NCBI RefSeq assembly: GCF_910592395.1
Contig: NC_088309.1
Coordinates: 20,338,599-20,402,598 of the forward strand
Direction of reading: 5' to 3'
Origin: Lineus longissimus
Taxonomy: Eukaryota; Nemertea; Pilidiophora; Heteronemertea; Lineidae
DNA length: 64,000 nt
Shown: one piece after another, positions 28,001-59,240 of the stretch
Numbering within the stretch: position 1 is the stretch's first letter
Layout of the letters: the number at the start of each line of letters is the position of its first letter
The notes under the pieces: generated by a model
The model's input: the letters and a program-made list of their open reading frames with translations, nothing else
Told to the model about the DNA's origin: nothing
Database searches by the model: none
Made by a program: the position numbers and the translations under genes

Positions 28001-31000
28001 TGTCGACACAAGGGTCAACATGACACTGGTACATTCAAAATTGAATGAAACTTTTACGCTTGATTCAGAGGGCAACATCATTGATGCTCAGTTTGAAGGT
28101 GTTCAAGAAGATAAGCCAAATGAACTTGTTTTATTGCGTGACAAAATCATGCCCCCGCCTTCTGCTTCTTGCATTCCTAGTATAACGTTTTCAACAGTTC
28201 CTCGGGTTGTGACAGAAAAAAATCCCTTTACAAAAGTAAACCGCCATGGTTCACCATTGTCAGGGCAGTTTGATGATGCTGACAGCCTGCTTAGTGAAGA
28301 CATCTCCTTGCTATCATCAGATCACTCGAGTGGTCATTCAAGTCTTTCAGACTCTACCATAATATATGAATACCAGTATACGGACATTGAAGATGGCCAT
28401 GAACTGATTGAGAGACACTTTGTCTCAAGATCTGTGACACCGAGCCCGGACACCACTGTCTGTTGCTGCAACTCCTATGACAGTGCACCATCAGTGGCCT
28501 CAAGTCTTCCCTCGGTGGCGTCCAGTGTGCGGAGACTCGATAATCTTCAAGTACGTGAAATGCTGCAGAATTTGGGTGATGTTCCAGGACCGGTGACTGA
28601 ATCAACACGCCTTGTGTACCTAAGACGATTGACACATTTGAGGAAAGATCCTTCTGCCCCAAGAAGAGTTGTGAAACCGACTTGTTCAGGTAAAAAAATT
28701 AAATTTCGGGTCGTTCCTGATATGCATCTTTGCAATTTCCGAAAGGTATGCTCCAAATTGTTTAAATTTGGAAAAGTGTGTGTCAAAATAGCGATAAAGA
28801 TACATGTACCAGCAGAGCTTGAATGTGGTTCTTTTACTTAGAATCTAACGATAGAATACATGTATTTCGATAAGATGAAAGAACCTGGGGTATTCTGAGA
28901 AATAAAAAGGTTTGTGCTCACTTTCATTTAATGGAATGTAATAATGATTATATATGTGTCCGACTTTCAAATTGTAAATCATTCAATTCTGAACTGTGTG
29001 GGTCATATTTTCAAAGATCACACCATTCGAGAACAGTGCAATTCTTTGCAGAAACAACTCAACTGCTGAAAACTTTGAACACCAAACCACGTTTTTGAAT
29101 ATGTCACGATATAGGAACTGCTGTTTTTCCTCCAGGCTACTCCCAACAGCTGTCAACCATTCTCCAAGGAAGCGATGACCTCTCTGTTAAAGACTTCACT
29201 GCTATTGATGAGCAGGAGATGAGTTCAAGCTTCAGTGATCCAACAAGGACCTGGCGAGAAGGATCCCTAAAAGCTTCTTTCAATTATCTTCTGCTGGATT
29301 CATCTGTCACGCAAAATCTTCCCATGGCGACTAATCTTAGTAAGTTTTCAAAATTTTTAATGAAAGCTGTATTTGGAAATGTAAACATTCAGAATATTTG
29401 GGAGACCCTTTCTGTCAGTGCATACAGTCCTCGTAAATGTTTCTTGTTGTAACTGGAGACCTGACCCGAACCGGGGTGAGGTTCTCCGGGTTCAAAGAAA
29501 CTTACTTTGAGCACAATAACCACTTACTTTTAGCTATAGACAAAATAATTCTGAGGATGAACAGTTCAGTATCAGTAAATTCTCTCAATTCATTTGGTTG
29601 GCACTCAATTCAGTGTCAGAAGTTTATCAACATTATCTTGTCACTGCCAAGCTTCTGGTCCAAGTTGATTATCAACTTCAAAACCTCAGTCGTAGTGAAT
29701 TTCACTTTGTTCCTCAAGTTATGTCTGTTCTTCTTTCAGCCGAGCATGAGAAGTTCAAAATATTCATCAGCGCCGTGTTATACATCGGAAAGGGCAAGCG
29801 ATCTCGTCCTTATTGTCATTTTTATGAAGCTTTGGACAGCAGGAAAAAAGGCTGTACCGGTAATGGCAAGGTACTGTATTTGAATGAATATGCTACTGTT
29901 ATGCAAGCTCAAGGTTCATTCCTGATGTCTCAGTTTTTCTTGAAGAAGATCATAATGCTATATCACCACTTTTTCAAGGTTAAATCTCCTGTAGATATGT
30001 TATCATGTATGCGATGGAGACCGTGTTGTTTCTGTAGATTTTGATATTGACATATGTAGCCTTTCACAGATCTCTTGCTGAGAACATATCAACGATTTTA
30101 AATGTGTTTTCAGGTTGATGCATTGAAATTATTGTAATCATTTTCAACTATAATGTGTACTTAACTAACACCTTTCTGGTAGAAAGAGGCTCTCAATGGC
30201 TTACACCAATTCATGTCCATTATATTTTCTTGTGGCTCTGCTAGATAGAGATAAACATTGCCCGAGTGCATATATTGAGCTTTTCCTTTTCACAGGTGTC
30301 GAACAAAGTGGAACGAATCCTTGATATTTGGAACCAAGGCCTTGGAGTTGTGTCTCTCCATGTTTATCAGAATGTGTTACCCGTGGAGGCGTACACTCGA
30401 GAGGCTGCCATGATCGATGCGATGGGTAAGGAAGGTTTCCCAAGCATCCCCAAGTGTTATTCACGTCATGCCTTTCTGTCTGAAATTTAGTGTGAGGTCG
30501 TATTGTTTGCCACTGTCCGTCAACCTCTTCAACATCACATCCTACATCTAGGCTGTAAATAGTGCAACCACTTAATACCTGACTGACCATTAAGACGGAG
30601 GGATTTGTTTGTAAGGATATGCTTGTATTGAGTTGGAAGATCAAAGAAATGTAGTGCATTACTTGGTGTGGTACAACTCGGGTTCATACTAGACATGCTG
30701 TCTTTGTTGATTTGACCTAGTGTCCAGGACGGAGTCTTTACCAAGTACGGCACTCCTGATTGAACTCCTACCTGAAAGTGAGATGTTTACATTTTCTGTT
30801 TAAAAATCATCCATTAGACAGTCAACTCTGCTTGCAGAAGTCTAATCCAATCCAATAAACCTTTGAATCTCTTTTGCGTGCATGTAATCACATCGCTTGG
30901 AAACCAATATTTCTGATCATTTCTCACTTCTTTTTAAGGCATGGCGAATCTCACAAACATTCAGAAGGGAAACTATTATGGTGTGGCGTCCACATGGACT

Positions 31001-33284: not shown

Positions 33285-35756
33285 TCAGACCACAGTTTGT
33301 TGATCTATGACACACATGTCCTTCCCATCAAATGTCACAACTGCATCTTTTAAGACCTGGTCCCTTACTCTATTTTGTTTTTTGGCTTTTGACCAAAGAT
33401 ACCACCAAATATACAGTCCAATGAAGATGGGGAAACTTCCCATTCCTATGCTGGTCCCAAGCATGCGTGTCCGGAGTGGGTCCTTGTCGTAGATAAGGCA
33501 TGCACCACAGGCTGTGGGGTCTTGGAACATGCAAGTTCCATCTATGATGGAACCAAAGACTATGGGGGCTGGAATCCCTGCAAAAATCCACAAATTACTT
33601 ACGGCGCTTTGATCATGTTTATTGTTATGAGAAACTTTGGAATGTCATCTTATCTATTCATCACGATTTATGGGAATTCTTAAACATGATGACCACCAGA
33701 GTCCCAATAGGTCAGTTGTGTCCACAGACATCAGCAATAGTTATACTGTAAAGGTCTGGTTTCTCTGACCAGCTTATCTGTTGATGTTATGTCAATGTCA
33801 TGTGAGGGAAAGTACGACAAGGGATTGGACTATAAAGTAGAGTGTACTAACTCAGTAAGAGTACTTTTAACAAGTCATCCATGAGGAATGTTTTACAATA
33901 CGTTTGGTGGTGGTATTGTGTTGATGCCGGTTCCTAATTGAACTTCATACTTACCAACTATGGAGAAAAGGAACATTAGGAAGCCAAGTGCCAGAGACTT
34001 ATCCTGGTCTTCAGTACTTCTGTTGAAGAGAAAAGGCTTGAAGGGAAACGCTGATATAATGGAATGTCTATTGGTACATAATGATGCATGACTTCTTCAA
34101 GATCTTCTTCAGTGTTTGCTCTGCACTTGGATGCTATATTCTCCTGAAGTAGTTCTCCTCGAAGGCGGGATAAGCATATTTTGTGTGCCACCTTTGGGCT
34201 TTGTTCTGCATTCTCTGCAAGTCTACCCCTGCAGTCTTGCTTAGGCAATCAAGGACCACCAACTCAGTACTAATTCCTAAAATTTTGCATGCACTATTAA
34301 GGTGGCCATTATGAGAGAAAGTTTTGCTTCTGATTCTACAAATAATACCATTTAGTAGGAGAGTAAGATTTTTTTAAATGCCTACCTCAATAGGAGCATG
34401 ACACCAGGCATCATTCCTAATCCATTTAACAGGGCTGCAGCAAACAGAACAGCGGCAAAGGGGATGAGCATGCCACAGCCCTTGCGACACGAACCCTTCC
34501 TGGCACCACCATCAGGAATGCAGGAACAATTTTGAAAGGCTGTCTGTGAAATTGTCTGTGTAATAAAGATATATCAATCACACGGCCCTGACATATGTAT
34601 GGCAAACCATTTTTTCATCGGGGGAAGATTGTGAAAGAAACAACGTTTTTTGGCGAAGAAATCACTTGGTATTTTCCCCCAAGAAACCCCTGATATTATT
34701 CCACAAAGCGGTTATTTTTGTTTCCAATCCTCCCAAAGACTAGGATTATTTATCTCAGTGTGTTTGAACCAAGTCTCTCTGAGTCGATAGTATAGCTTAC
34801 AAAGATAGTCAGCTGGCATTGAAGTTTTGCCATTTACTAGTGATCATTTATTTTGCTGAATTGGGTTACCAATGGTCCACACTCCTTCTGAACCATACCA
34901 AAGAAAGGTGGTTGTTCTGAACCTTACCGAGTTGAAGTCGGAGCATCCCGCGTGACAAGGAGAGTAATAAGTGATGTCATCACTCCCACAAACAGGGCTG
35001 AAGTAATCTATACCACAGTCACATTGTCGATTGCAACTTTCTGTGAAGTTGTACCTGCAAAAGGAATGCCATTTTTTAAAATGCTGAAAGTCATCTTTGC
35101 TATTCACACTTGTACCTATAGTCTGCCTTCAATGATTTAAAACAGTTGAGCTGCATAAAATTACCAAGTTAGAGGTTTCTCAACCTTGATACAAGACAAT
35201 GGTGCGTGAACTTACTGGTCGTATCCAGTCAGCCCATGTATTGGTGTGGATGAACATCCTAGCCCTATGAAGATAAGTCGAAGTGCGATGGTCCCTATGG
35301 CTATCAGACAGTTGCACCTGGCCAATTCCACCATACCCATGTGCAGTTTGGATGTCATGAACCCACTGGAAAATGTTCCTATCGTGGCTGGAATTGCAGA
35401 TGCCACAACTGAAAATGTCAAAAGAATATGCAATGTTTGATAGTTCATTCAGTACTACTTACTCATTGAAAACTGAATTGAATTCACCACTCTGTTCAAT
35501 TTAACTAAAATTATTTAAGTTTCACTTTAAAGATGATGTCTTTTTAGCTTGATATAATATCAGATCGATTGAAATGTTTGAACATCCTTACTTAAAATCA
35601 TACTGGCGTGGGAAGCAGTTACATCAAACTGATTTTCTATGTATTTGGGGAGGAAGGTGAAGAATCCGATCAGTCCAAATGCAGTTAGAATGATCCCGCA
35701 GCAAGAGAGGCCATATACACGATTCTTCAAGAGTCGCTTCATTGCAGCAGGTAAGC
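33285..35756 (-). CDS. OATP/SLCO C-terminal cassette A (TM7-12 with Kazal-like loop)
   Basis: Six exons: 35756-35592, 35408-35216, 35054-34928, 34543-34386, 34019-33955 and 33577-33285 (stop at 33285). Incoming phases are 1,1,2,0,2,1, and all borders are GT-AG. The first exon reads AAMKRLLKNRVYG and ends ITAS-like (VTASHASMIL), the OATP TM7-8 region. The third and fourth exons hold the cysteine-rich extracellular Kazal-like loop (CNRQCDCGIDYFSPVCG, CHAGC, CSCIPDGG, GSCRKGC), ten Cys in all. The last exon ends in TVV, a class I PDZ-ligand form. No start codon or N-terminal half lies upstream within 5 kb. Joined to the N-terminal module (51165-49552) it gives a 690-residue transporter. It is closest to cassette B, so the two are probably recent duplicates. 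Confidence 0.88.
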
Positions 35757-36487
35757 CTGTAACAAATAGAGACCGTAAATAAAGGAGCGTCTCAAAGTAA
35801 GGCCAGGCTGGTATTAATGTCGTATTTATATTCCCTCTACAAAGGGTGCTGCAGGTATACACCGATGTATTTTTTCTGATATAACACAAAAAAACTGGAT
35901 TCTGGCTCTTATAATAGGCCCTTACGCATCTTGTGTGACTCATTGGGTAGCAACAGCATAGGTATATACATTGGTGTGGGGTGTAGGCTATGCATATTTG
36001 GGTATAACCAACTTAAGGTCCCTCCACCTGGAACTGTTGGTCTCATTGCCCAATTTTGAGTAAATAAACCACTGTACAGGACTGCTCTACAGAATTATCA
36101 TTGGACATGTTCAATATGATATAAACTTACCTTGCTTAGTTCTTGGTATATTGTCCTTGAACCTCTTCAGTAAGAATTAAATCTCCTCTTGGTTTCAAGT
36201 AAAACGGACTAATATGAAGCCATATATCAGCAAATGAGTGCTTTGGAATTTTGTACCACTGTCGTGAAACAGGTCAACAGTAGTGAAAGGGTTAACAGCT
36301 GATAAAGGTTCCCTTGTTCCTGTACATTCCCCTCCTTCAAGTTACTTTTTCCAATATGGCCACCACAGCTTCCATCTTAAAACGACTCGAAGTTAAGAAT
36401 TCATGAATTTGGTATCATAATAGGTTACTGTCCACAACTCAAAGAAATCAATGCAGCCAATCGATGTACAGTCACATATATATCTTG

Positions 36488-36493
36488 TTTATT
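36488..36493 (-). terminator. Candidate poly(A) signal of OATP cassette B
   Basis: Minus-strand AATAAA 393 nt past the cassette B stop. Confidence 0.35.
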
Positions 36494-36885
36494 TTTGTAG
36501 CTTGGCAATGACAAATAATACAGGATGGTCCCCATACTAAAAAAACTTACACCATTATATAATAGCAGTTGAATATAGTATAAAACAGATAAAAAATGTA
36601 CACAAGCAACTATCCATCTGGCATCTAAGAATAATGATAATGTTATCCATGTCATTGTCAAATGTGAGAGGTCTAAGACCCAGTTGTCATTGGATGTTTG
36701 CTTCACAACTCCCTTGGCAAAGCCCCATGTAATTCCTTAGCACTGGGGAGCAGTACCAATATGATCAATGATACAGGCATATTTAAAGGCATACCCCATT
36801 TGTTCAAAATTTTAAATTTCCAACTGTGCATAAGATACATTGCATTGAGGGATGACTGTTGTGATTTGGACTGTAAAAACTGATC

Positions 36886-39656
36886 TCAAACAACACTGTT
36901 TTGTTCACCAAAACATGGGTCAGTCTCACCGACATCATCATCATCACCATCACCATCATTGTCATCATCATAATTGAAGCTTCTTGGCCTACTTGGATCT
37001 TTGCTGGTCCTATCAAAGGTCACCTGAGCCACGTCATCAATGACCTCATCCTTAGCCTGTTCTTCTCTCTTTGCTTCTGACCAAATATACCACCAAATGT
37101 ACAGTCCAAACACGACCGAGAAACTTCCCATTCCAAGACAGCCTCCTAGCAATCGTGTCCGCAGTAAATCCCTGTCATAGATAAGACAAGAACCTTTTGC
37201 GGAGCTCTCGTAAATAAGGCATGTTCCATCTATGATGTGACCAATGATAATTGGGGATGGAATGCCTGAAACACATCGTAATATAAGTCGGTGTGAATAT
37301 TTGATAAATGAAGACTAAATGCTGAAAGATTTTACAAAGATGTAGATGTAGATATTGATACAGCACCTTCGGAAAGACTCTTCGAAAGTGACACTCTCTT
37401 TCTTTTACACAAACGCATTCTATTGTGTTTCCAAAAAAGTATGTCACTTCTTGAAAAAGCCTCTGCCCATGTTGACGCTCGTTGTCTGGAAGCTGGGCGA
37501 TGTCAATGACATTGTGGGTCAAGATGGAAAATAGGTGTCTTGTTGAAAACATGAACATCTCTGTGTGCCAACTAATAGTGATGTAGGTCTATGTCGAGAT
37601 GTGTTGCGTGTATAAATCACTGCTTGAATGCTTACCGACTATGCCGAAAAGGAACATCAGGCATCCAAGTCCCAGGGCTTTGTCCCGATCGCCCATAGTC
37701 CTGCAAATGAGTAAAGGTACAGTTATGTTTTGTTCAAAGACAAGATCATGTTTTGAATGATAATAACAAAAAGGTTATGGATCCATTTGCAGTTCCGAGG
37801 GCTTTCGCTGACCATTAAACATTTGCCAGTGCCCGATCCGAATGGAGTGGTCAAGCATGTGTGTTCTTCGTTCCTAGTAGGAATGCGTCTTTTCCAATTA
37901 CTATGTTCCCTTCCATTTTTTCTTTGCACAGTACAGAATAACAAGAAGTGCATGGTGAATGATGAAAAAGTCTTTACCTTAATATCAGCATCATACCAGG
38001 CAGTGATCCTAATCCATTCAGGAGTGCAGCAGCAAAGAGAATCACACAGAAGGGGATGAGCATATCACAGGGTTCCCGACACAGACCCTTGATAGCGTCA
38101 CCATCAGGAATGCAGGAACAGTTTTTGAAATTGGTCTGAAAATGACGGAATGAACGAAAACATGTTGAGCACAGCCATTGCCTGTTATCACTATCGGCTA
38201 CTTTGTGATCATTATTCTGGCCCATATGGTTCCTGCCTTATGTGTCCCTTTATGAGGAGGAGGCTTATGGCTAATTGTTAAATGTCACCACTGGTATAGT
38301 GGTATCAATGGTTATCAACAAATCGAAAATTTAGAAGTTGTGCTAATTTGCACCAAAGATATGATCGATAACCTTACCGTAGAATTGTACTCTGAGCAAC
38401 CTGCATGACATGGAGAGTAATATGTAACATTGTTGCTCCCACAGACAGGACTGTAGTAATCTAGATGACAGTGACATTCCAGATTGCAAATTTCTGTGAA
38501 GTTGTACCTGAAAATGGTACATGCAGGTCATCAACATGTTCATCTTGAACTAACAGCATGCTTTTTTGATTTTCATTTAATCGAGCTATGGTCGTTGTTT
38601 CTCTAACATGTTACATGGTTGAGTTTTGTGCAATATAATCAGTTGAGAAGGTTTTATTGGGATAGGGGCAGTTGATTTTCATTCAAGGCGTGCCTGATAT
38701 TCCATGAGCAGATATAAGATGTGTTGTATTAACTCACTCATCGAATCCCTGTAGCCCTTGCACTTGTTGGACTGAGCAGCCGATTCCTATGAAGATTAGC
38801 CGCAGTCCAATGGTCACAATTCCTATCAGACAATTGCACCTAGCCAATTCAACCATACCCATGCGTAGTTTGGATGTCAGGAACCCACTGGAAAATACTC
38901 CTATTGCCGCCGGTATTGAGGATGTCCCGACTGAAAGTGGTGAAGATTGACGATGCATTGATTTACTATAGACCAGTGCGGTAGCCAGAACGGGCCCAGA
39001 GGCTCCGTCAAAAAAGCAAAGCATGGAGATTTTTGCCGATGTTTAGACTAATGGAGCTGTTTTGCCCCCCCCCCTCACCACCACCATAACCAAAAATCTC
39101 ACTGTGTCCTTCTAGGCCAGTATGATAAATTCTGTTCATTGGTACCTCACATGAGGAAAGGGCAAACCAGACTTGGCTTGTGAGACACTCTTTATTCCTA
39201 AAACTATCTCTAATGTCACGCACTAGATGAGAAGGCAGTTTGTACCATTCCTGTTAAGCGAGCAGACAGTGAACAAGCTTGTCAGGTTGGCAGAAGTCAC
39301 CAACAGGTCTGAAACCTTTGATTTACCCCTAACTATAAAAACTTAGTTTATGGCCTACTCGTGTAGCTAGATTCCGTCTATTTCAACAAGCTTAAGATCC
39401 CATGAACAATAACTTTCCGAACATGGCTCTCATCTGGGTATAAAAAACTGTAGAAACAGAGATCATTTAAAGAATTTGCAAAAGTCCTTACCTAAAACCA
39501 TACTGGTTTGAGAAGCTGTGAGACCGAACTGATTTTCCAAATATTTGGGCAGAAAAATGAAGAATCCAATAAGCCCAAATGCAGAAATCAGCATGCTCCC
39601 ACATGAGCAGATGTAAACCCGATTTGTGAAGAGTCGCTTTATCGCTAATAGGAACT
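36886..39656 (-). CDS. OATP/SLCO C-terminal cassette B (TM7-12 with Kazal-like loop)
   Basis: Six exons: 39656-39492, 38930-38738, 38507-38378, 38135-37978, 37700-37636 and 37265-36886. Phases match the other cassettes. The second exon (IPAAIGVFSSGFLTSKLRMG) is nearly the same as that of cassette A. The loop exons read CNLECHCHLDYYSPVCG, CHAGC and CSCIPDGD. The last exon is longer than in A, C or D up to its tail: an acidic Asp-rich run encoded by a GAT-rich stretch (about 36925-36970), then a C-terminal NSVV, again PDZ-ligand-like. No N-terminal half is found between this cassette and cassette C. With the shared module the product would be 720 residues. All borders are consensus and the frame has no stops, so it does not look like a pseudogene. 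Confidence 0.88.
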
Positions 39657-41684
39657 CTGTAATGTAGAAATCATTTTCTTAGAGCATCTCGGAATTGGCA
39701 ACTTCCCTCACATGCTTAGGATTTCATAAGCCCATCTTGACGCACAAAGATCTCAAAGACCCTTTAATGAGCTCTGCCTGTTGTAAAGCTCTGCCTGTTA
39801 TAAAGCTGGGGATTGGACTTATTGGGGTAAAGCTACACGCACATGGCAGACAAATTACAAAAAAATATTTTTCACATCTATTTGTCTAATCTGTGTGGTG
39901 GGTGATCAAAACCAATACATATAAAATCTGCAATATTTTTTGCACAGAATAATGTTTCTGTCTGTCGTGTGTGCTTGATGCAAAACATTTGGAGAACATT
40001 CCTCAGTGAAGCCACTATGTTGAAAAACAGATCACGCATATGGTGCCCCCCCCCCCCCGTTGTTTTTTCACGTGACCGCTTCGTTTGTTTGTGTGTGGGA
40101 ACCTGAAAATTTGTCTGCCGAGTGCGCATCAACCAGCAGGTAGGCCTACAGGTACTCGGTACTGGGATAGTCCAGTCCGTGCAGGATCTTTCACAAACAG
40201 TCAAAAAACGGGCTTACCTTAAATAGGTTCACATTCCTTCACCCGACAGTATCCAATATGGCTGCTGAAGTTGCAATTTTGGCTTAGTTGCCACCATATT
40301 ATGCCTTGAATAAGTTTTGCATCATAAGTCCACCATGGCCAATTATCGGTTTTGAAAACATGTGTTGAAGTTGAGGTGTGGCCAAGAACAACAAAAGTTT
40401 CTAAAGATGTGTCGTTATACTATGTGGAATTCTTGGTGAGAGGAAATATTCATTACTCAACTAACACTACATCTTTTAAAATATAAATATAGTTTATTGC
40501 AGATTCTAAAATATACATACAGTGGATAGGGAACTAGTTTTCTTGGTCCCATGCAAGGGGGTACCTTGTAACAAGGTTCGACTGTGTAGCTCATTTTGCT
40601 GGAGTTGCAGAACTTAAAAGTCCCACTATTTCGTATAGATTCTTACACTCAGTATCAGAAATGTTTAAAACTGGTTGGTGCATTGCCTTTTAGGCAGTCA
40701 TAAGTGTAAGTGATGCCTCACGAAATCTTGAAACAGGCCACAGTCATTTAAAACATTGAATGATACATGTACTAGTAACAAATGAACATCATTAAAAAAT
40801 TATTACAGATTTTTTTTAAAAATGAAAAAGAGCACAAAATATAATTATCCGTGTGATGTGAGTATAAACTATACTTTCTGTCTCCTCATGTTTTAAAAAC
40901 TGTCAATGTGAATTTGAAGATAAGGGGTGCCACTGACTCACTGACCATATCCTATTCTATCACACTCTTTGATATTACCAAGTATAAATTTATTGATAAT
41001 ACCTGCAATGAAATGTACAACCCTTTAATCTATAAACATCTACCAGGTCCAACCACAACAGCGTCAGACATTTCATTAAATTTGCAAAATCGCGGCGGCA
41101 AATAGAGCCGATTGCTGGATGTTGGCTATATAACTTGCCTCCAGGGCAGAATCTTGCATTGATCTAAGCAGCTATGGAACTGAACTGTAGTCCTTTAAAA
41201 CATTTGTTAAGATTCCTTTGATAACTGTGGTCTCAGTATCCAGTATAGAATTATCTTGATTTCCTTACTTTCTTCACTTCAGGAAACAAAAAATTGTCAC
41301 TTTATGTCATTATCTGGAGAAATATATACATGTAATCTCAGCCAACAAATATGTGATTTTTTTCTCAATTTCTTATATGTTATAATGGGATATCTGATGA
41401 ACACACATGTACATTTTTTAGCTGATTGAAAGCTCTTAATTACACATTTGACCCTGAAAAACCTTGCACAATGAGTGTGTTAGTTTTGAATAACAATTTC
41501 TAGTGACCCATCCTGATATCCTCTATCACAAAAGTCCTCACCGATTCTGAATGATATGACCATCGCAACTGCTATATACACAATAATAAGTTGATTAAAA
41601 CGTTAATTATCAATTTTACATGGAATGTTTTGCATTTTTGGCATATGACTTCCTATGATTCCTTTACTAGAAGCATTAAACAGT
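39657..41684 (-). other. Spacer between OATP cassettes C and B
   Basis: No OATP N-terminal coding is seen. A minus-strand donor-like site, AAG/GTAAGC, lies at 40218, and a 'ccaatatggc' word at about 40252. A C run is at about 40047-40060. A candidate poly(A) signal for cassette C is at 40989-40994. Confidence 0.4.
40989..40994 (-). terminator. Candidate poly(A) signal of OATP cassette C
   Basis: Minus-strand AATAAA 691 nt past the cassette C stop. Another is near 40493. Confidence 0.3.
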
Positions 41685-44532
41685 CTAAAGGTCATTCCCA
41701 CTGGTGATGTCATAGACGTCCACGTTGCCATTATCTGCAAGGCTGGCCAAAGCCTCTCCGCCATGTTTTTTCTCCCTCCGTTTCTTCTTGTACAGATAAA
41801 TGAAGATGAACACACCAAATGCGATGCCAGGAACTTGGCTGCAGACAAACACTCCGAACATGAGGTTCTTCAAGGGCGTCTTGTCGTAGACCAAGCATCG
41901 TTCTAAGCCACACTGGTTGCTGTGCACCATACATACATTGTCGATCAGACTCCCAAAAACAATTGGGGATGGGATCCCTGGGTGAAAATAAAAGATTATT
42001 ATGATCTGGGACTTGCCTATGTGACAACTGGTAGACTATTGTGGAACTTTACCAAGAATTGTTTTGCTCTTAAGATCCACCTGAATTACTTCTTGACCAC
42101 CAAGGTTTTTCCATCCCCAACTCATCAATGCAAGTATGTGTAGTGTGCTGTACATTTAAAGTAAGTTTAAAACAATGAAAGCCAGAAACGGCATCACATA
42201 CTAGCCATTGGGTAGGATTGGTTGATCCCCTTACTTTGGAAAACCCATCTTGACTGTAGCTAAATGCTTGTTGTGCTCAGTCTCTACATCTTACCTCAGC
42301 ATTTTTATGATATTATTACATGCTTTCCAACTACTTCTGTTTGACCAGACGCCACATTTTCTTACTACCCTTAAACCAGGTAGGTTCGTCTACTAAAGGA
42401 CACTGCTTGTGATTTTGCAAGAATTCTAGAGAGGTTGCCTCATAGGCACTATCATGTGTCTACTCACCAATGACAGAGAAAACGAACATGAGCAAACCAA
42501 GGCCGAGCGCTTTGTCTCTCTCTTCCATGGATCTGTAATCAACGTGAGAACAATGGTATAGGATGGAACCAACAACCTTAAATTGATACTTAAATGGCAA
42601 ATTTAGACTTAAACTGTGTACCTATTCGATATGATTTTTCTTCTCTGCTCAAACTGTTCACTGGATAAACATCTGCAGTTTCACCATTGACCAAAGCGGA
42701 TGCCTCACCGTTCCTCACTGACGTTCCTCTCACATGAGGTTGCAAGATCAGCCTTAAACAACATCTGTCCTGATGAAGCCGATGTGGTTAATGTGAAAAC
42801 TATAGAGACCTATCAGTAAACATTTATCCAGTGAACAGACTGAACTTTCTAGTATGGTAATGAAAACGTAATGTCACAAACCCCAATTCGGCAATATAAC
42901 GGATATGTTGTGTCTTACCTTAGATTTAGCATGACACCAGGCAACATTCCGAGTCCTGATATAAACGTGGTCACTAGCATCAATATACCAAAAGGTATGA
43001 TCATGTTACACTTTTCAACGCATGGACCCAGGGTTGCTACACCGTCTGGAATACAACCACAGTCTTGGAATGTCTGAAATTTTAAGACGTGACAATCTTC
43101 TAATAACACCAAAACCAAAAACTGCACTGCTATGAATAAATTGTGAACCAGGAAGTATGTATATATGATGTAAGTATTTGAAAGCTCTCTCAAACTGATT
43201 CTCCAAATTTTGATTTTTTATGATGAAACACTGCTAATGCTCTTTACCTTGTTGCCATTGGGTAAATCAAGACAGCCGGCATGGCACGGCGTGAAGTACG
43301 TTTTTCCGTCACTTCCGCAAACAGGGCCGTATTGTTTCACACTACATCCACAGTTGGCGTTACACGACTCTGTGAAATTATAACTGGAAGGCAATAGTCG
43401 AAGACACAATTGATAGCCTTTTGATCAGATGGTACAACTACCAACTAGCAAGTTCAGGAGAAGTGTCAGCCCTTTTGGGCACCATCTTGGATTTCACCTT
43501 GATCTCGTTTCAAACTACAATGAATATAATTACCGCTTATAAAGCATCCCTATCTCATCTGACAAATAAGGACCAATATCATTCTATATGAGGTGGGACA
43601 TCGACTTTTGTTGATATGTCGGAAAATAGTCAACAGGTAGCTGATACATCATACCTGGGCTTACAAGACAATTAGCCCATTATGATAATGTTACAGAGCT
43701 TTTATGTAAGTACGTTAGATGAGGTCCTATACACTAATAATACATACACATCATTAGCTGTCACTCCGTTAATGACATCATTAGATGGACATCCCAAAAA
43801 CATGAACACAATACGTAGACAGAAGGCGATGATACCAAGAATTAAGTTGACCTTGGCTAGGCCAAGGTGATCCAGTCGAAGCCTTGAGGTCATGAGCCCA
43901 CTGCAGAAGGTCCCAATGGCAGAGGGAAGGGCTGAGAGCAAGGCTAAAAGGCAAGCATTATATAACATCAATACTTATGGTGAAGAAAATGTGTATGGAA
44001 AAAGAGGTAGCTCGATATTGGTTGTTCTTTCTTGTGGCATTGTCAGTGAGCTTGGCCCTTTTGATTTCATTTTCTAGTTGGTCTAGGTCTTGCTATGGAC
44101 AGCCTTTTGAAAGAACCTTGGCTTGATCAAAGTCATACCCTATAGAACGAGGTGATTCTGGTAAGTTCAAAGTAGAAATGCTTTACAAACCAAACAAGTG
44201 ACCAATACTGTCAAATATCTGGTGACCTCTGAAGCAGGGATCTGCAAGGTCAGGGCTACATGTAGGTTCACCTTTAAACCTCGTTTATTTTCCCACCAGG
44301 GCAAGGTTAACGCAGCACACCCTTGAACTTTTTCAGAATAGATTTTGCCATGAAACAACCCACCTACCTAGAAACATGGCAGCTTTAGATGCAGTGATAT
44401 CGAACTGGGTCTCGAGATATTTCGGTATGAAGGTGAAGAATCCAATGAAGCCAAAGATACTGAAGACAAGACCCAGAATGATGGACATGTATATTGGATT
44501 GGTAAGGAGGCGTTTCAATGCCTTTACCAGGC
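41685..44532 (-). CDS. OATP/SLCO C-terminal cassette C (TM7-12 with Kazal-like loop)
   Basis: Six exons: 44532-44368, 43943-43748, 43383-43248, 43073-42919, 42532-42468 and 41977-41685. Phases are again 1,1,2,0,2,1. The first exon reads ALKRLLTNPIYMSIILGL and FIPKYLETQFDITAS, a textbook OATP TM7-8 entry. Loop exons read CNANCGCSVKQYGPVCGSDG, CHAGC and CGCIPDGVATLGPC. The fifth exon (EERDKALGLGLLMFVFSVI) and the sixth (PSPIVFGSLIDNVC) are typical. The tail ends SGNDL. The second exon is one codon longer than in A, B and D, by use of the donor GAT-GT/gtatgt; the alternative donor two bases upstream would break phase. With the shared N-terminal module the product would be 693 residues. Confidence 0.88.
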
Positions 44533-44925
44533 CTAGAAAGAAAAAATGTTAGAATAAGCTTAGAGTAACCAGTCGATGGCCAGTTGCCCAGCCAAGGACA
44601 TCAGAGAGAGCCAACAGAATAAAGGTTTTGTTGCCAAGGATAAGGTGTGTTATTGCAAGAATTAATGGAGGCTAATCTTTGGTAACTGGTAAGCTAGCTA
44701 GTAAGGATATGAAAAAAGGTTAGACTTAGAGTTAACGATGTTACGGTTATGGCATAGCAAGGAAGTTAGCCACAGCTTGAGCTATATATCGTTAGCATTG
44801 GTGCTTTATGAAGAAATGGTTTATCCTAATCTGAATACATCTGATCTCATTTCCCGAATGACATCTAAAGGTATGCAAGTAGGTCGGGATTTTTTCCGAG
44901 CCCTGGCTGTTAAAAATATACCTAC

Positions 44926-44989
44926 CTTTTTGATGCTCGTGGATGTTGTTTTCCCTTTCAGTCAGTTTCGATACGATTAACCAATACAT
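44926..44989 (-). CDS. Possible cassette C leader exon (start codon plus 21 codons, phase-1 donor)
   Basis: An ATG at 44989 opens a frame (MYWLIVSKLTERENN...HQK) that ends exactly in phase 1 at a good donor, AAAAAG/GTAGGTAT. That is the phase cassette C's first exon needs. If used, it would make an N-terminally truncated six-helix product. It has no signal peptide and no homologue that I recognise, and it may be chance. Confidence 0.2.
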
Positions 44990-45193
44990 GAATCAGTTGG
45001 CATTTTCCTCCCTTTTTACTCAGAGTTGCTTGCATGGGCAACCGATTATAATCCATTTATCAAAGCAAATGAGCATTTTTTCATTTTTATTGGGCACAGT
45101 TGAATACAGATGCGAATATGTTTCAATATCTTTTCATAACTAAGGAACATGAAACAAGTGTTTTTTTATATACATGTACATGTATTTTTGAAT

Positions 45194-45199
45194 TTTATT
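45194..45199 (-). terminator. Candidate poly(A) signal of OATP cassette D
   Basis: Minus-strand AATAAA 350 nt past the cassette D stop, inside the spacer before cassette C. Confidence 0.4.
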
Positions 45200-45548
45200 A
45201 TTTTATAAATTCGTATTAACAGTATTCTATAAATGTTCAGTATCAAAGCTGTGGCATCATATTTATACATCTTTATACATCATTCATTAACATATACTTG
45301 ACTCCGTCATCAGTTAGGCCTATCACTGGTACATGCATGTGAATCACTTTTTTAAAAACTTTGAATATATTCATTTGCACATTGTGCATGTACTAATAAT
45401 GATATTATACAAAAGGGCGGTTAAAATATTTAAATAATTTTATAACAAGTTAAATGAAAATAGAGAAAGGTCATCAGTTTGCCTCTCGCTGTAACCGTGT
45501 TGGTTGTATGTATTGGCCTGACATTTGCTCTTGCAAATACAACGCATT

Positions 45549-48500
45549 TCAGATGCCCACATTACTGAGATCTCTACAGCTTCCCTGCATTGCCGCACTG
45601 ATGTCATCCTTGGACCCCACATTCAGGGTCTCCGGCTCAGCTCCAGTGACTTGGATAACTGGCATGACTCCCTTTCTCTCCTCATTCTCTTTCTTTGCCT
45701 CTTGCCTCTTGGCTTGTTTCACCAGGTCATACCAAACATATATGATGGGTAAAATCATGAGGGTCCTCATTACGCCCATGATAGACATGATCCCGTAGCG
45801 GAGGCCATCTCGGTCGTACAGGACACACACATCTCGCCCGCAGCCAAGGCTGTCTTTGATGAGGCAGAAACTATCAAAGATGGCTCCTATAATGACTGGA
45901 GATGGGAAAGCTGTAATAAAGATAAGAAGTATATCACTAGCTTTCATTTCTTTTTCACACGTCATCTAGTCTCATTAACACATGTTTCTCTAAACTGAGA
46001 AAAACCTTCTATCATGCATTGTCCTGATGTTCAATACTCCTTAAAAACGGCGCCTTAACAAGCTGAAGCGATACTTTTGGTTCTGATCGAGGTTCATGTT
46101 CTTTTAACACCATTTTCATATAAATGTTCATGTGCACTTATTCACACGAATGCAGGATGCATTGGTCTAGAGATAACATAAAAAAACAACAACTTGTGAG
46201 AAAGTTGATTTGATCGATGACTATTATATTGAATTCAATTGCCAAACATCAATGGAACGAAATCTAGAAGGCAACTTACAGAAAATGCTGAAGCTGAACA
46301 TTGTTACACCGAGACTGAGGGCTTTGTCCCGAGGTTCAACAACCCTGAAAAATGGCAATTAGTACTGGTGGATGAATGCAGGAAAACTTGAACCATATTA
46401 ACTTTGGAAGAGGACAAATGGAGTAGATGTAAAAGTTTACGGCCATCAGGGAACATCTTGATTCAAAAATGTACTTTGGCATCTCAGGTCAAGAGAACCC
46501 TTATGTATATTGATGAAAGTGAGTAGTCCTAGGTTTGCCTACCTTATGGAAAGTATGATCTTAGGTACAATAGACATTGCCCCAGCGAATGCCCCACAGA
46601 ATGTGAATACAGCATAGGGTATCAGCATACCACATGTGGTATCACACACACCAGACACGGCACTGCCAGCATCAGGGATGCAACTGCACTCCGAAAATGT
46701 TGTTGCCTGGATACATGAAAAAAAGAAAAAGGAGATCTTTAAGAGATCACAGTCAACAGCAAAATGCAAAGGTAGACACGTTAATGTAGAAATGAAAAGC
46801 AATTGTTATTGATATGACCTTGAACTGACCTTGCCAGAAATGTTACTCTTTTGGCAGCCAGCATAGCATGCAGAGTAATACATCACATCGTCATCACCAC
46901 AAACTGGAGAAAAGCGTCCATTTGTGCATTTGCAAACATCCGCACATGATGTGCTGTTGTCGCCATTGTAGTACAATTGCCTTGAGCTGAAAAATGAGAA
47001 AGCAAGATGAACGAAAATTAACAACTTTTTTAGAATATTGCTACAAAAGGCTAGGTTTTCATGTGAGAAGTTGTACTAGGTTTGATCGTCATGGTAGACA
47101 AGAAAATGGCTAATCACACCTACACACACATTGAACCCCAACACCTTATCTCAGGCCAGTGTCACTTCCTGAAGCTAACAGGTTATTATTTGATGAATTC
47201 GAGATGTCTTGTTCAGGACTTTAGTGTGCATGACATTGTATGAAATGAACCTATCTTCAATTTTCAACACTGACACCCACTTTACTTTTTGAAAAGAGAT
47301 GTGGGCATAAAATGTCGTCCTCGCTTGTCTGAGGCTAAATGGGTAGGTCTATGATATAGCGCATACTAAGAGTGAACCAGCTGTTGGTCTACCTTTACCT
47401 CTCCACTCCTCTGAAACCAGCAGTATTTGGCTGAGGGCATCCAAAGACCACAAGCATAGATTGGCTGATGGCAGTGATGACGTAGAGAAGTGTACAGAAC
47501 TTTGCTGTGCTGATTACACCAAGTTTTAGCTTTGACATAATGATGCCTGAAAATCCAGAGCCAAGGAATGCCGGGAGTGCACCGCTAAGACCTGAAACAG
47601 ATGCAGAATCTTATGCATAAGCATGTAATTTTGCTTCCCCGAGGTTGTAGTTTAGACTTTTTGACTTGTCAGAATACTGCATTACATCCTTATGTGGAAA
47701 CTGGAAAAATCATGAAAAATCATGATTGAGTGAAGTCCATTAACATGTATTGTGAGATGCAGGAAATTTTTTCCATTTTACTTACCAAGAACCATGTTAC
47801 TCTTCGAAGCTGAAATTCCGAACTGATGCTCCAGATACTTGGGTTTGAAGGCTGCAAGTCCGCTTACCACGAACAGGGCAAAGCAAGTAACGAGGACAAG
47901 GACCACGTAGAGCTTGTTTGTCAACAATCTCTTCAGTGATTTCAAAAAACCTGAAACAGATTGAAAGATTTAGTGTTTGCTGTTATCCTGGTTGACAGAT
48001 TTGGTGTTTGCTGTTATCCAGGTTGACAGATTTAGTGTTTGCTGTTATCCAGGATGACAGATTTAGTGTTGGCTGTTATCCAGGTTAACATATTTAGTGT
48101 TGGCTGTAATCCAGGTTGACAGATGAAGAGTCTGCCGTTATCCAGGATGACAGATTTAGTGTTGGCTCTAACCAAAGACTACAAAGTATTTTCCATGGCA
48201 TTAACAATTTCCCCTTGGACAATGTGACTCTTGGACGTTTGCTCCCCTGGAAATCTCCCCATAGGACATTTGCCCCACTGAGGCAAAAGTCTATGGGGAT
48301 GTCCTACAAGGGGCCCCGGAGATGTTACATTGGGAGATTTCTAGGGGGAGTTGTCTAGGGGAGATACCCTATGGGGGCAAATGTCCAGGGAAGATGTCCT
48401 ATGGGGGAGAGGTCCAGGGGTAATTAGTAAAGTGGAGAAGTCCAGGGAACGTTGTCCTTTAAACTATTGCAAAATGATGAGCAATATGCAATCAAGATAT

Positions 48501-51165
48501 TTGGCTACTGCTAAACCGAGTTCATTTTGTCAAATCTCAGATTGACTTTCGTGTGCGTTACATTGACTTTGTACATGTAGATGTTTTTCAGTCCCTAGAA
48601 ATGTGTTACCATATGGCCTATTATATATACTGATATTGGTAACCCGTTCACATACCTTCCACTAGAGGCTGACTATACCTAATCAGAAAGTGCTTCTCAT
48701 TCGGGAAATTGAAAAAAGATGCCCGTCTGATGTACGATGAAGAGGATTCCTTGAAATATCACGAGGTATATATTTATGAAAAATGATGTCGGTCCATCCA
48801 ACGTTCCTGGGTGACCTGATCGGAAGATGCGCATTTTTGTTACGAACCTGTCATAGAAATGAATTGCATGTGTATTTATAACATACCGTTAGTGAAAGGT
48901 GCATGGTTATGTAAGGAGAAGTTAGTTACATGCAGATTTCCCTTTTTAATGATATTTTCGTTTCAAAATTAAAGCCACAGCAAATTCGATCACAAATGGC
49001 AAATCCCCAAATTAATTGAAGGAAGCGCTTAACTCAAATGGTAAGAACTATTCCGTCCAATTTTCTCAATCAAAACTGACAAAAGGGAACCAATGACGAC
49101 AATCACAAACTTTCTAGTGGTATTGGACAGTTGAATGTGGGCCTCAAATCACGAATATGGAACACGTCACAACAGGTTACTATATAGATGTTAATGAAAA
49201 ACGTTATAGGCTAAATAGGAGAGAATGGTTATTTAGGATCAGATCGGAAAGCTAAGGCGAGTGTAGTCTAGCATGGTGGTAGATAACGTTTATATATACA
49301 TTCCTTATATTTACATAAACACGAAGGCCATTATCAGAACAGTTTCTAAACAATCGAAATAACACAAAATCAAAGATATTTGGATGTGAAAAGAAGAGCA
49401 CAACAATAAAGTTGTTTGCATTTCCGTAGCAGCCTTATTTAATGGCTTGCATCCGAACTATGACAGCACAAGAGGTTGATACTTGATGGGTTTCGTGGTT
49501 CTCTCTGGAATACGTAAACAGGACGATGAGAAAAATGAGAAGTGGTCCTACCTTTCAAATCTACCTTCTCATCGCCACCTCCTCCACCCATCATCATCGG
49601 TGACTCCGTAAACGGGCGTTTCTTCTGTTTCTTGTTGGCTTTTTTCTCCTCTTTCTTTCTTCGCTTCTCGGGGTCATCTTTCGGTATTGGCAGTTGCCTC
49701 GGGAAGAAGAGTAGTGGGATGCCGGCCAGGAAGATGATGATGCCGCATGCTAGGAATCCTACCCACCAGGCACCCACCCATTGGGGATCAAAAGGAGTGA
49801 GGTTCGTGGCTAGAAAACAAGGTAAATTTTACATTTAATTAAAGAGTACATATTACATCAGTTTTCCTTTATGTCGTTGCCAGGGGGAAATTTGCCCTTG
49901 TGCCCTTTGGATCCATATTGGTGACCTAATGACTTTTCAATGAGGATATTGCCATTACAGAAGGATATCGAATACGACACTGTATTAAGCTGTTAATTAA
50001 AGAAAGCGGTTGCCGAAGTCAACATCTGGTGAACACGACTACACATTACTTTAATGATAATTCTGGTAACAAAAAGAATGGCATTTTTATTCTTATAATG
50101 CTGGTGCAGCCATTCAAGCTGGTGCCGTAACTTACGCTTCAGGTCGACAGGCTTGCTTGTGAACACAGCTCCGAGCACAAATCCAAGGATGGGTGACAAA
50201 GTCCTCAGACTGAACAGGATACCTGAAAATATTCCGTAGAACCAAGAATTGATAAAGATCATTCTTGAGTGGTAGAACTGATGACAATATGCAGGTTAAG
50301 AGACACGGAATGACTAAGATAAGCCATTTAAGAAATTCCTTCCCAATAAGGATGACACCGAAATAAAAAAAACCGTCAACAGGTAAAGGTACAAAACCCT
50401 GTAGGATCGACATTTTAGACGTAAAAAGGTTGGCTTACCCAGATATATGGAGGACACGTGCTTCTTCACATTGTCATCAATGAAGGTCATTCCAAGAGAC
50501 CAGAGCGTCGAAGCAGCAATTCCTATGATGACCTGTGCGATCACAAGCGTAACATAAGCCCCCGTGCTCCGAGCCGCAACTTCATCTGACAACTCTTCCT
50601 CGCATGCGTTCGTATCATTCAAAGCAGTGTACACGCTCTCATTCCTGATGGTGCAAAGACTTGATTTAAGAAGAGCCATAGGCGGTGTTAACTGCTCCGT
50701 TGAGTTGAAGGCAACTTCAGTCGCTTTGCTCTCATGCATACCGCCTCCCCATATGAAGTAAGGCATCGCACTGAGGACCCCGCTTGCTCCGATGAACAAG
50801 CCCGAAATCCCGATGACCATGGGTTTGTGTGCCTTGCTGGCCATGTAGCTGACAGGGATGACAGTTATCAAGAATCCAATGTCATTGGTGCTGGTAATAA
50901 AGCCTGATTTTGAGCTAGGAAAACCGAAAGCTTTCTCGATGGTTGTCAACACTGATACAACATATGTTGCAAGTGCGCCATAAAAAGCGACAAGAATCGC
51001 CAAAGATGCTGTGAAGAGTTTTATATTGGCTAAAGGTCTCATGCATTTGGGTTGACATGGTCCCAGTCCACATGTTGTTACCACTGGTTTCTTTGGCTTC
51101 TCTATTTCGCCGTTGGGTTGTTGAAGTTCGAGGCCGTCGTTCAGCGGAATGCTTTGGTCACCCAT
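45549..51165 (-). CDS. Organic anion transporter (OATP/SLCO), N-terminal module plus cassette D
   Basis: Nine exons. N-terminal module: 51165-50439, 50222-50136 and 49809-49552. Cassette D: 47950-47786, 47591-47399, 46986-46830, 46706-46543, 46344-46280 and 45910-45549. All phases agree, giving 725 residues. OATPs are 12-helix plasma-membrane carriers of organic anions. Exon 1 has a cytoplasmic N-terminus, then TM1 onwards ([39 protein letters not shown]) and a glycosylated loop. Exon 3 carries the family signature [13 protein letters not shown] (from about D279; usual Arg is Gln here) and a long Lys/Glu-rich loop 3. Cassette D has the Kazal-like loop ([37 protein letters not shown]). Cassette D is the most diverged of the four. 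Start chosen as the first Met ahead of the conserved region. Confidence 0.92.
47959..48170. repeat. About 31-bp minisatellite, about seven copies
   Basis: The unit is near 'agtgtttgctgttatccagg' plus 'ttgacagattt', directly behind the acceptor of cassette D's first exon, in the intron joining the two halves. Confidence 0.85.
48239..48421. repeat. G/C-asymmetric inverted repeat
   Basis: Arm 1 (48239-48276, 'gctcccctggaaatctcccc' onward) is inverted in arm 2 (48374-48420, 'gggggcaaatgtcc', 'tatggggga', 'ggtccagggg'). Arm 2 carries a 13-bp duplication ('agggaagatgtcc'). It could fold in the pre-mRNA of the joining intron. Confidence 0.6.
48422..49551 (-). other. Rest of the joining intron (N-terminal module to cassette D)
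   Basis: AT-rich, no ORF or exon recognised. Confidence 0.4.
49552..51165 (-). CDS. Shared OATP N-terminal module (TM1-6, loop 3), present once in the array
   Basis: Three exons of 727, 87 and 258 nt end in phase 1 (AAA-G/gtagga). This donor is compatible with the first exon of every downstream cassette (47950, 44532, 39656, 35756), each 165 nt with a phase-1 acceptor. The module encodes 357 residues. The adjoining loop 3 is rich in Lys, Glu and Gly and hydrophilic, and it is where the joined halves meet. Confidence 0.85.
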
Positions 51166-59042: not shown

Positions 59043-59240
59043 GGCTATTCTTACGACTAGTCGTAACTTAGGATTTATGCGATTTCAGAGATTAAACTGA
59101 GGATCTAGGGAGATATAAGACTAGTGTAAAGGAAGGGTTAGGGTTAGGGTTGGCGCTAGGAGTAAGTGTTAGGGTCAGGGTGAGCGTCAGGGTTAGGATT
59201 AAGGCCCAAAAAGGTGAAAATGATCGTCGTAAGAATAGCC
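59043..59240. mobile_element. MITE with GGCTATTCTTACGAC inverted ends and telomere-like interior
   Basis: GGCTATTCTTACGAC begins at 59043 and its inverse (gtcgtaagaatagcc) ends at 59240. Between them, at about 59130-59205, is a run of GGGTTAGGGTTAGGGTT and variants. The element is 198 bp and non-coding. Confidence 0.7.

What the first reader, a model, noticed from the sequence alone, without database searches (positions are those of the whole stretch)
33285..51165. One OATP N-terminal half followed by four interchangeable C-terminal half cassettes
Seen directly: a single three-exon TM1-6 module (51165-49552) ends in phase 1, and four complete six-exon TM7-12 sets follow (first exons at 47950, 44532, 39656, 35756), each with a stop codon. 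The first exon is 165 nt in all four, the second 193/196/193/193, the fifth 65 in all four, and phases are identical. Each set joins the module in frame to give 725, 693, 720 or 690 residues, normal OATP sizes. No ORF resembling the 727-nt N-terminal exon is present between sets, so three sets have no front half of their own. Stop-free frames and consensus splice sites argue against pseudogenes. Inference: one gene makes four transporters by alternative 3' cassette choice, like a protocadherin-style cluster turned around. I know of no described transporter with half-protein cassettes.
Basis: partly seen in the sequence, partly recalled or inferred. Interest (0 to 1): 0.92.

Follow-up and report, generated by a model that had tools for sequence, protein, structure and literature searches.

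The report
One transporter front, four alternative backs
A ribbon-worm gene carries one copy of the front half of a membrane transporter followed by four different, intact versions of the back half, so it can probably build four transporters by choosing one back half, although no RNA evidence was available to prove the joins.

Summary
On the minus strand one three-exon OATP front half (51165-49552, phase 1) is followed by four complete six-exon back halves with identical phases, open frames and GT-AG introns.

The window is from Lineus longissimus, Nemertea. I found 13 other OATP genes there, each with both halves; this front half is single-copy, at most 38% identical to another. The back halves form one clade branching in chromosomal order. 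They differ by up to 66% in protein, yet keep 38-40 of 43 conserved positions and show selective constraint. Dead partial copies at another OATP locus look different.

Most likely the front half is spliced to alternative back-half cassettes. That is inferred: no transcript was seen, and the one public protein model found joins cassette 1 to two small exons instead. Partial precedents are mod(mdg4), Gr39a and human LST-3TM12. Four swappable halves of a 12-helix transporter appear to be a new variant.

The parts
50439..51165 (-). N module exon 1 (ATG; 727 nt)
   Evidence: Pfam OATP E 4.9e-39
50136..50222 (-). N module exon 2 (87 nt)
49552..49809 (-). N module exon 3 (258 nt), ends phase 1 at donor AAG|gtagga; holds [13 protein letters not shown]
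   Evidence: Pfam OATP E 2e-18; donor ranks 42 of 1110 GT sites
47786..47950 (-). cassette 1 exon a (165 nt)
   Evidence: acceptor rank 7 of 1098 AG sites
47399..47591 (-). cassette 1 exon b (193 nt)
46830..46986 (-). cassette 1 exon c (157 nt, Kazal loop)
46543..46706 (-). cassette 1 exon d (164 nt)
46280..46344 (-). cassette 1 exon e (65 nt)
45549..45910 (-). cassette 1 exon f (362 nt, stop)
44368..44532 (-). cassette 2 exon a (165 nt)
   Evidence: acceptor rank 20 of 1098
43748..43943 (-). cassette 2 exon b (196 nt)
43248..43383 (-). cassette 2 exon c (136 nt)
42919..43073 (-). cassette 2 exon d (155 nt)
42468..42532 (-). cassette 2 exon e (65 nt)
41685..41977 (-). cassette 2 exon f (293 nt, stop)
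39492..39656 (-). cassette 3 exon a (165 nt)
   Evidence: acceptor rank 29 of 1098
38738..38930 (-). cassette 3 exon b (193 nt)
38378..38507 (-). cassette 3 exon c (130 nt)
37978..38135 (-). cassette 3 exon d (158 nt)
37636..37700 (-). cassette 3 exon e (65 nt)
36886..37265 (-). cassette 3 exon f (380 nt, stop)
35592..35756 (-). cassette 4 exon a (165 nt)
   Evidence: acceptor rank 12 of 1098
35216..35408 (-). cassette 4 exon b (193 nt)
34928..35054 (-). cassette 4 exon c (127 nt)
34386..34555 (-). cassette 4 exon d (170 nt)
33955..34019 (-). cassette 4 exon e (65 nt; lowest-scoring acceptor of the 22 scored)
33285..33577 (-). cassette 4 exon f (293 nt, stop)
48887..48904 (-). first coding exon of the public NCBI model of cassette 1 (P0056), inside the N-to-cassette-1 intron; true 5' end unknown
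   Evidence: mapped from P0056
48656..48749 (-). second exon of the same public model, joined in phase 1 to 47950
   Evidence: acceptor score 3.5, donor 8.2

Best explanation
A single OATP (SLCO) gene in the ribbon worm Lineus longissimus with one front half (TM1-6) and four alternative back halves (TM7-12 plus the Kazal loop). The primary transcript starts upstream of 51165. The phase-1 donor at 49552 is spliced to the first-exon acceptor of one cassette (47950, 44532, 39656 or 35756), and the transcript ends after that cassette's stop, giving four full-length transporters with the same N domain and different C domains. In MFS transporters the substrate site lies between the two domains (recalled), so cassette choice probably changes substrate range. 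Shown: anatomy, open frames, phase identity, selective constraint on the cassettes, a single copy of this N half in the genome, common origin of the cassettes. Inferred: the splice joins themselves, that they occur in cis with alternative 3' ends, and the change of substrate.
For: Exact exon/phase match of four sets to one donor. The N half occurs once in the 391-Mb assembly; the closest other N part is 38.2% identical over 283 columns, while the 13 other OATP genes found all carry both halves. Cassette 4 as query finds no further set elsewhere, only those paralogues and the partial copies at C2:16.95. No N-half match between sets. Constraint: dN/dS 0.23 for sets 3-4; in lineages 3, 4 and 2 the second codon position changes at 0.24-0.29 of the third-position rate (0.088/0.366, 0.093/0.366, 0.178/0.621; lineage 1 not tested this way); 38-40 of 43 conserved columns kept by each cassette. 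Simulated random substitution at 0.25 changes per site gives 6.8 stops on average and no stop-free run in 500; at only 0.1 it still gives 3.3 (2.8% stop-free); the real sets have none. All four first exons keep a good phase-1 acceptor (ranks 7, 20, 29, 12 of 1098 AG sites, scored with a model trained on other introns of the locus), which needs an upstream phase-1 donor. Cassettes form a clade, SH-aLRT 98, in the order (1,(2,(3,4))). The cut lies at an intron that 7 of 12 paralogues tested also appear to have (165-nt phase-1 exon), at the boundary of a six-helix domain.
Against: No RNA read was available. No N-plus-cassette protein (396-1260 aa) appeared in a protein search of a database that holds other L. 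longissimus models. The one model found for the locus (P0056, 405 aa) joins cassette 1 to two small exons, not to the N half. Poly(A)-type hexamers follow every stop but only slightly above background (11 in 5,458 bases, 2.0 per kb, against 1.25 per kb on the strand). The N3 donor is only moderate (rank 42 of 1110). Conserved Cys at column 628 is kept only in cassette 2, and Ala408/Gly413/Gly632-type columns vary.
Confidence: 0.66

Rival explanations
1. Half-transporter or split-gene model: cassettes have their own short leaders and promoters and make C-half proteins, as in the public 405-aa model of cassette 1; the N half is used with cassette 1 only or makes its own short protein.
For: P0056 maps to exons at 48904-48887 and 48749-48656 joined to 47950 in phase 1. 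No public N-plus-cassette model appeared. The N3 frame reads on through its donor for 37 residues to a stop at 49441-49439 that overlaps an ATTAAA, so an N-only protein of 394 residues is conceivable; it would lie just under the length limit. A crude scan found five single-exon ATG leaders with a phase-1 donor before set 4.
Against: The leader of P0056 does not supply the six missing helices and is modelled with low confidence (mean pLDDT 43-57 for residues 1-30). Its second exon has a low acceptor score (3.5; 2 of 22 scored acceptors are lower). The same crude scan found no single-exon leader before sets 1, 2 and 3; it cannot see multi-exon leaders and missed that of P0056. The model does not explain why four sets are constrained as OATP back halves when no front half was found for three of them.
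Confidence: 0.15
2. mod(mdg4)-like trans-splicing: cassettes are transcribed from their own promoters and joined in trans to the N transcript.
For: The architecture and the public cassette-1 model with its own 5' exons resemble mod(mdg4), where common exons are joined to 3' units transcribed from independent promoters (PMC12692577, abstract in listing). LST-3TM12 is described as trans-splicing of SLCO1B3 and SLCO1B7 (PMC6090214 passages).
Against: All four cassettes lie in cis on the same strand within 16.3 kb of the N donor, so ordinary splicing suffices. Nothing found here is specific to trans-splicing.
Confidence: 0.08
3. Sets 2-4 are decaying remnants of partial or whole-gene tandem duplication.
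For: Partial 3' duplication happens here: three partial 3' copies lie downstream of the OATP gene at C2:16.95 Mb.
Against: Those copies are 91-97% identical in aligned stretches, introns included, and carry stops or a frameshift. The window sets are only 34-65% identical in protein, blastn matches between sets reach at most about 10 bases past exon edges, no stop or frameshift is present, and the codon-position pattern shows constraint in lineages 2, 3 and 4.
Confidence: 0.05
4. Assembly artefact (collapsed or lost N halves).
For: None found; raw reads were not available.
Against: No N bases in the window. The published assembly uses PacBio reads, has contig N50 10 Mb and 0.4% duplicated BUSCOs (PMC8593623, passages). 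Gaps between sets are only 1.0, 2.0 and 1.1 kb. A collapse would need three N halves to be near-identical while their C halves differ by up to 66%.
Confidence: 0.03

Closest known systems
OATP/SLCO family (SLC21), e.g. human OATP1B1, OATP1C1, OATP2A1
   Same: Both halves match Pfam PF03137; Kazal-type fifth loop with the conserved cysteines; the fold of the cassette-1 half matches solved OATPs.
   Different: The 13 other OATP genes found in this animal have one complete C half per N half (one also has dead partial 3' copies); here there are four complete C halves for one N half.
LST-3TM12 (SLCO1B3 joined to SLCO1B7), human
   Same: Front part of one OATP joined to another OATP gene's exons, reported to give a functional transporter (PMC6090214 passages, citing Malagnino 2018).
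   Different: Two separately named genes and one partner (their being neighbours is recalled); here one front half and four cassettes with no other front half found.
mod(mdg4) (and, recalled, lola) of Drosophila
   Same: Common 5' exons joined to one of many alternative 3' units (PMC12692577, abstract in listing).
   Different: There the 3' units (recalled) code for short C-terminal domains of chromatin proteins, and the joins are made in trans; here each cassette is six exons coding for half of a 12-helix transporter.
Drosophila Gr39a (also Gr23a, Gr28b)
   Same: Alternative large segments (six helices each) of a membrane protein spliced to a shared part (PMC2204066, abstract and introduction).
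   Different: Mirror image: single large 5' exons vary and three small 3' exons are shared. UGT1A and protocadherin clusters (recalled) are of that orientation too.

Membership tests
OATP/SLCO transporter | Pfam PF03137 in both halves | tested here: met
   N exons 1 and 3 E 4.9e-39 and 2e-18; all 4 cassettes match
OATP/SLCO transporter | Large fifth extracellular loop with Kazal-type domain and conserved cysteines | tested here: met
   Kazal_2 in 4 of 4; the 10 loop-5 Cys columns (residues 491-554 of set 1) conserved in at least 90% of 52 relatives are Cys in 4 of 4. Outside the loop the Cys column at 628 is kept only in cassette 2
OATP/SLCO transporter | Family signature D-X-RW-(I,V)-GAWW-X-G-(F,L)-L (recalled) | tested here: inconclusive
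   [13 protein letters not shown] in N exon 3: one fixed position differs (Q for R); human OATP1B1 also departs at one position
OATP/SLCO transporter | Twelve membrane helices | tested here: inconclusive
   Crude hydropathy gives 5 + 6-7 peaks; the cassette-1 model gives six long helices or helix pairs and matches solved OATPs
OATP/SLCO transporter | Transport activity | not testable with these tools
   needs expression
Gene with common 5' module and alternative 3' cassettes | One 5' module, several complete phase-compatible 3' units, each with a stop | tested here: met
Gene with common 5' module and alternative 3' cassettes | No separate OATP front half for each unit | tested here: met
   small leaders as in P0056 not excluded
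Gene with common 5' module and alternative 3' cassettes | Transcripts joining the module to two or more units | not testable with these tools
   no RNA available; no joined protein in the protein search
mod(mdg4)-type trans-splicing | 3' units transcribed from their own promoters and joined in trans | not testable with these tools
   needs allele-phased RNA

The most novel reading that the evidence does not exclude
One gene encodes at least four full-length membrane transporters by choosing among four diverged six-exon C-domain cassettes for one invariant N domain, so that substrate range is set by swapping half of an MFS transporter at its natural inter-domain linker, possibly by tissue.
Probability: 0.62. 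Interest if true: 0.85.

Novelty: new variant of a known kind. Interest (0 to 1): 0.68.

Why it matters
If the joins are real, nature has run a domain-swap experiment in a drug-transporter family: four C domains, down to 34% identical, that must all fold and alternate with the same N domain. That would show which N-C interface residues are needed and how much of the substrate range the C domain sets, a question usually approached with artificial chimeras. It would also be a transporter gene built like mod(mdg4), with alternative 3' ends half a protein long, and would show that gene counts miss transporters when back halves are called separate genes.

Tried and rejected
Pseudogene array: rejected by codon-position constraint, zero stops, and contrast with the dead copies at C2:16.95. 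A codon-position count on those dead copies was not decisive: too few changes (3/3/7, 2/2/6, 4/5/13) and a slight third-position excess. N halves elsewhere: the closest other N part is 38.2% identical; short stretches of conserved exon 3 reach 57% over 46 residues. Paired intron elements (docking/selector type): in the one scan made (part of the N3 intron against 400 bases upstream of sets 2, 3, 4; set 1 left out) the best energies were -37.5, -40.5, -32.4 against 6 mononucleotide shuffles each of -29.3 to -34.2, -32.5 to -39.2, -30.6 to -43.8. Sets 2 and 3 thus beat all six shuffles and set 4 did not; too weak a test to claim or exclude pairing. Poly(A) hexamers: slight excess only. A phage search was pointless. 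Paper searches for OATP with sea-urchin splicing (0 papers), OATP with mutually exclusive (29 papers, 15 listed, judged by title and start of abstract), organic anion transporter in Nemertea, shared N-terminal/alternative terminal exons with transporter and solute carrier with mutually exclusive exons (unrelated) showed no description of such a transporter; the library lacks most subscription papers.
Full report
WHAT IS THERE. The exons were located from sequence context and joined in a script. On the minus strand a three-exon module (51165-50439, 50222-50136, 49809-49552) codes for 357 residues and one extra base (phase 1). Four sets of six exons follow, starting at 47950, 44532, 39656 and 35756 and ending in stops at 45549, 41685, 36886 and 33285. 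Start phases are 1,1,2,0,2,1 in all four; exons a and e are 165 and 65 nt in all four. Pfam finds OATP in N exons 1 and 3 and OATP plus a Kazal domain in 4 of 4 cassettes. N plus cassette 2 aligns with solved human OATP1B1 over residues 31-683 at E 2.2e-87.

WHERE IT COMES FROM. The neighbouring potassium-channel protein (my approximate join) is 98% identical over 82% of its length to a Lineus longissimus protein on a 29,188,318-bp contig. The window's own assembly has 391,118,348 bases, and the contig holding the window has the same length of 29,188,318. The published L. longissimus assembly spans 391 Mb, with a longest scaffold of 29 Mb and contig N50 of 10 Mb (PMC8593623: abstract in listing, passages). 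The window is at contig C2:20338599-20402598.

IS THE FRONT HALF REALLY SINGLE. In the window, tblastn of the N half finds only itself (next E 5.4). A family profile with filters off finds no N-half match between sets or in the 10-kb flanks. In the whole genome (37 of 37 candidates scored) the N half matches itself at 87-98% by exon; other first exons reach 38% and short exon-3 stretches up to 57% over 46 residues. Over the whole N part the closest paralogue is 38.2% identical over 283 columns. The Pfam search scored 80 of 104 candidates, so the gene count is a lower bound; the 13 other OATP genes rebuilt from profile hits all have an N part and a C part. The cassette-4 query finds the four sets here and otherwise only those paralogues and the C2:16.95 partial copies (61 of 61 candidates scored); the cassette-1 query did not complete. 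So for three of the four back halves no front half was found in the assembly.

ARE THE CASSETTES ALIVE. Protein identities are 65% (3-4), 49% (2-4), 43% (2-3) and 34-36% (1 with the others). Synonymous sites are saturated for all pairs except 3-4, where dS is 1.03, dN 0.23, ratio 0.23. Assigning changes to single lineages, second codon positions change at 0.24-0.29 of the third-position rate in lineage 3 (0.088 against 0.366), lineage 4 (0.093 against 0.366) and lineage 2 (0.178 against 0.621); first positions lie between (0.184, 0.109, 0.263). Lineage 1 was not tested this way. Of 43 C-half columns conserved in at least 90% of 52 relatives, cassettes 1-4 keep 38, 39, 39 and 40; the N half keeps 22 of 27. 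Random substitution of cassette 4 at 0.1, 0.14, 0.25 and 0.5 changes per site gives 3.3, 4.3, 6.8 and 10.8 stops on average, with 2.8%, 1.4%, 0 and 0 stop-free runs of 500; the real cassettes have none. Exons align between sets 3 and 4 at 67-79% nucleotide identity; their introns are at or slightly above the shuffled level (42-52% against 41-46%), and blastn matches end within about 10 bases of the exon edges.

A BUILT-IN CONTROL. At C2:16.95 Mb one complete OATP gene is followed by three partial copies of its 3' exons. Aligned stretches are 91-97% identical, introns included, and the copies already carry stops or a frameshift. That is what dead 3' copies look like in this genome, and it shows that 3' ends of OATP genes do get duplicated there. 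The window sets are much more diverged and intact. A codon-position count on those copies was too sparse to decide anything.

ORIGIN. In a tree of 69 C halves (13 paralogues, four cassettes, 52 relatives) the cassettes form one clade, SH-aLRT 98, branching (1,(2,(3,4))), which is their order on the chromosome. Cassette 1 has a long branch and the tree was a quick one. In the tree of 66 N halves this N half lies in a group of nine rows with five L. longissimus paralogues and three other relatives (SH-aLRT 98). The cassettes' nearest company is less clear. The cut between halves appears to be an inherited intron: a 165-nt phase-1 exon with a convincing acceptor is found at this place in 7 of 12 paralogues tested (an eighth has a 165-nt candidate with a poor acceptor), while the C8 gene has one exon across the linker. 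Stepwise tandem duplication of the 3' half, starting at that intron, is the simplest history; loss of three front halves from whole-gene duplicates is not excluded.

HOW IT PROBABLY WORKS. An exon whose acceptor is held in phase 1 needs an upstream phase-1 donor. All four first-exon acceptors score well (12.1, 9.2, 8.1, 11.1; ranks 7, 20, 29, 12 of 1098 AG sites) under a model trained on the 22 other introns of the locus. The N3 donor is moderate (7.0; rank 42 of 1110). It ends the only OATP front half found near. So the best reading is alternative joining of N3 to one of four terminal cassettes, each with its own stop and 3' end. The cassette-1 half, taken from the public model P0056, folds as a six-helix domain with a Kazal-type loop (mean pLDDT 83.7) and matches solved OATPs (E 1.2e-19 to OATP1C1). 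The cassette boundary is therefore a domain boundary. Change of substrate range is inference from the MFS architecture, in which the site lies between the two domains (recalled).

EVIDENCE AGAINST. No transcript was seen. The search with N plus cassette 3 could have found a public joined protein of 396-1260 aa and found none, although other proteins of this species are in the database. The only public model found for this locus is a 405-aa protein in which cassette 1 follows two small exons at 48904-48887 and 48749-48656. It may rest on RNA reads (then cassette 1, at least, has its own start) or may be a prediction filling a missing 5' end; the neighbouring channel model P0141 also starts inside the coding region seen here. 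The N3 frame reads through its donor for 37 residues to a stop, so an N-only protein is possible and would have escaped by length. Before set 4, a crude scan found five single-exon ATG leaders with a phase-1 donor; before sets 1-3 none. Poly(A)-type hexamers show only a slight excess (11 in 5,458 bases after the stops, 2.0 per kb, against 1.25 per kb on the strand). A pairing scan was equivocal.

WHAT IS KNOWN. Human LST-3TM12 joins SLCO1B3 to SLCO1B7 and is reported functional (PMC6090214 passages; the cited work itself was not read). Drosophila mod(mdg4) joins common exons to alternative 3' units in trans (PMC12692577, abstract in listing). Gr39a swaps six-helix exons on a shared end (PMC2204066, abstract and introduction). 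Searches, judged by their listings, turned up no OATP or other transporter with half-protein cassettes in the held library. I therefore rate it a new variant of a known kind, with the transcript evidence still to come.

Noticed in passing
L010:8108-10000 with L011:1-142, L011:6796-7496, L012:854-2719 (C2:16968108-16970142, 16976796-16977496, 16980854-16982719): Three partial 3' copies of a second OATP gene, 91-97% identical in aligned stretches including introns, with stops or a frameshift; the first two lie in a shared 1.8-kb block that is 99.8% identical.
   Followed up: partly
47957-48167: A 31-bp minisatellite (6.8 copies) ends six bases before the cassette-1 exon.
   Followed up: no
49439-49551: The N exon 3 frame reads through its donor for 37 residues to a stop that overlaps an ATTAAA, so an N-only protein is possible.
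   Followed up: partly
9476-12410: Kv-type channel gene (minus strand); the public model P0141 starts at an internal Met and lacks most of the BTB domain that the window encodes.
   Followed up: partly
27168-30041: Two plus-strand open frames, one with a LEM domain and one with a LEM-3-like GIY-YIG domain, probably one gene; a 33-bp tandem repeat at 27490-27685 lies inside the first.
   Followed up: no
59134-59201: Degenerate AGGGTT array (11.2 copies, 69% matches), the telomere-type hexamer (recalled), far from any contig end.
   Followed up: no
L018, L019 (C10:12939535-12967311): Two OATP genes arranged head to head, first N-half profile matches about 0.8 kb apart.
   Followed up: no
L029 (C8:1858234-1858629): The C8 OATP gene has one exon spanning the TM6-TM7 linker, so the intron used as the cassette boundary is absent there.
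   Followed up: no
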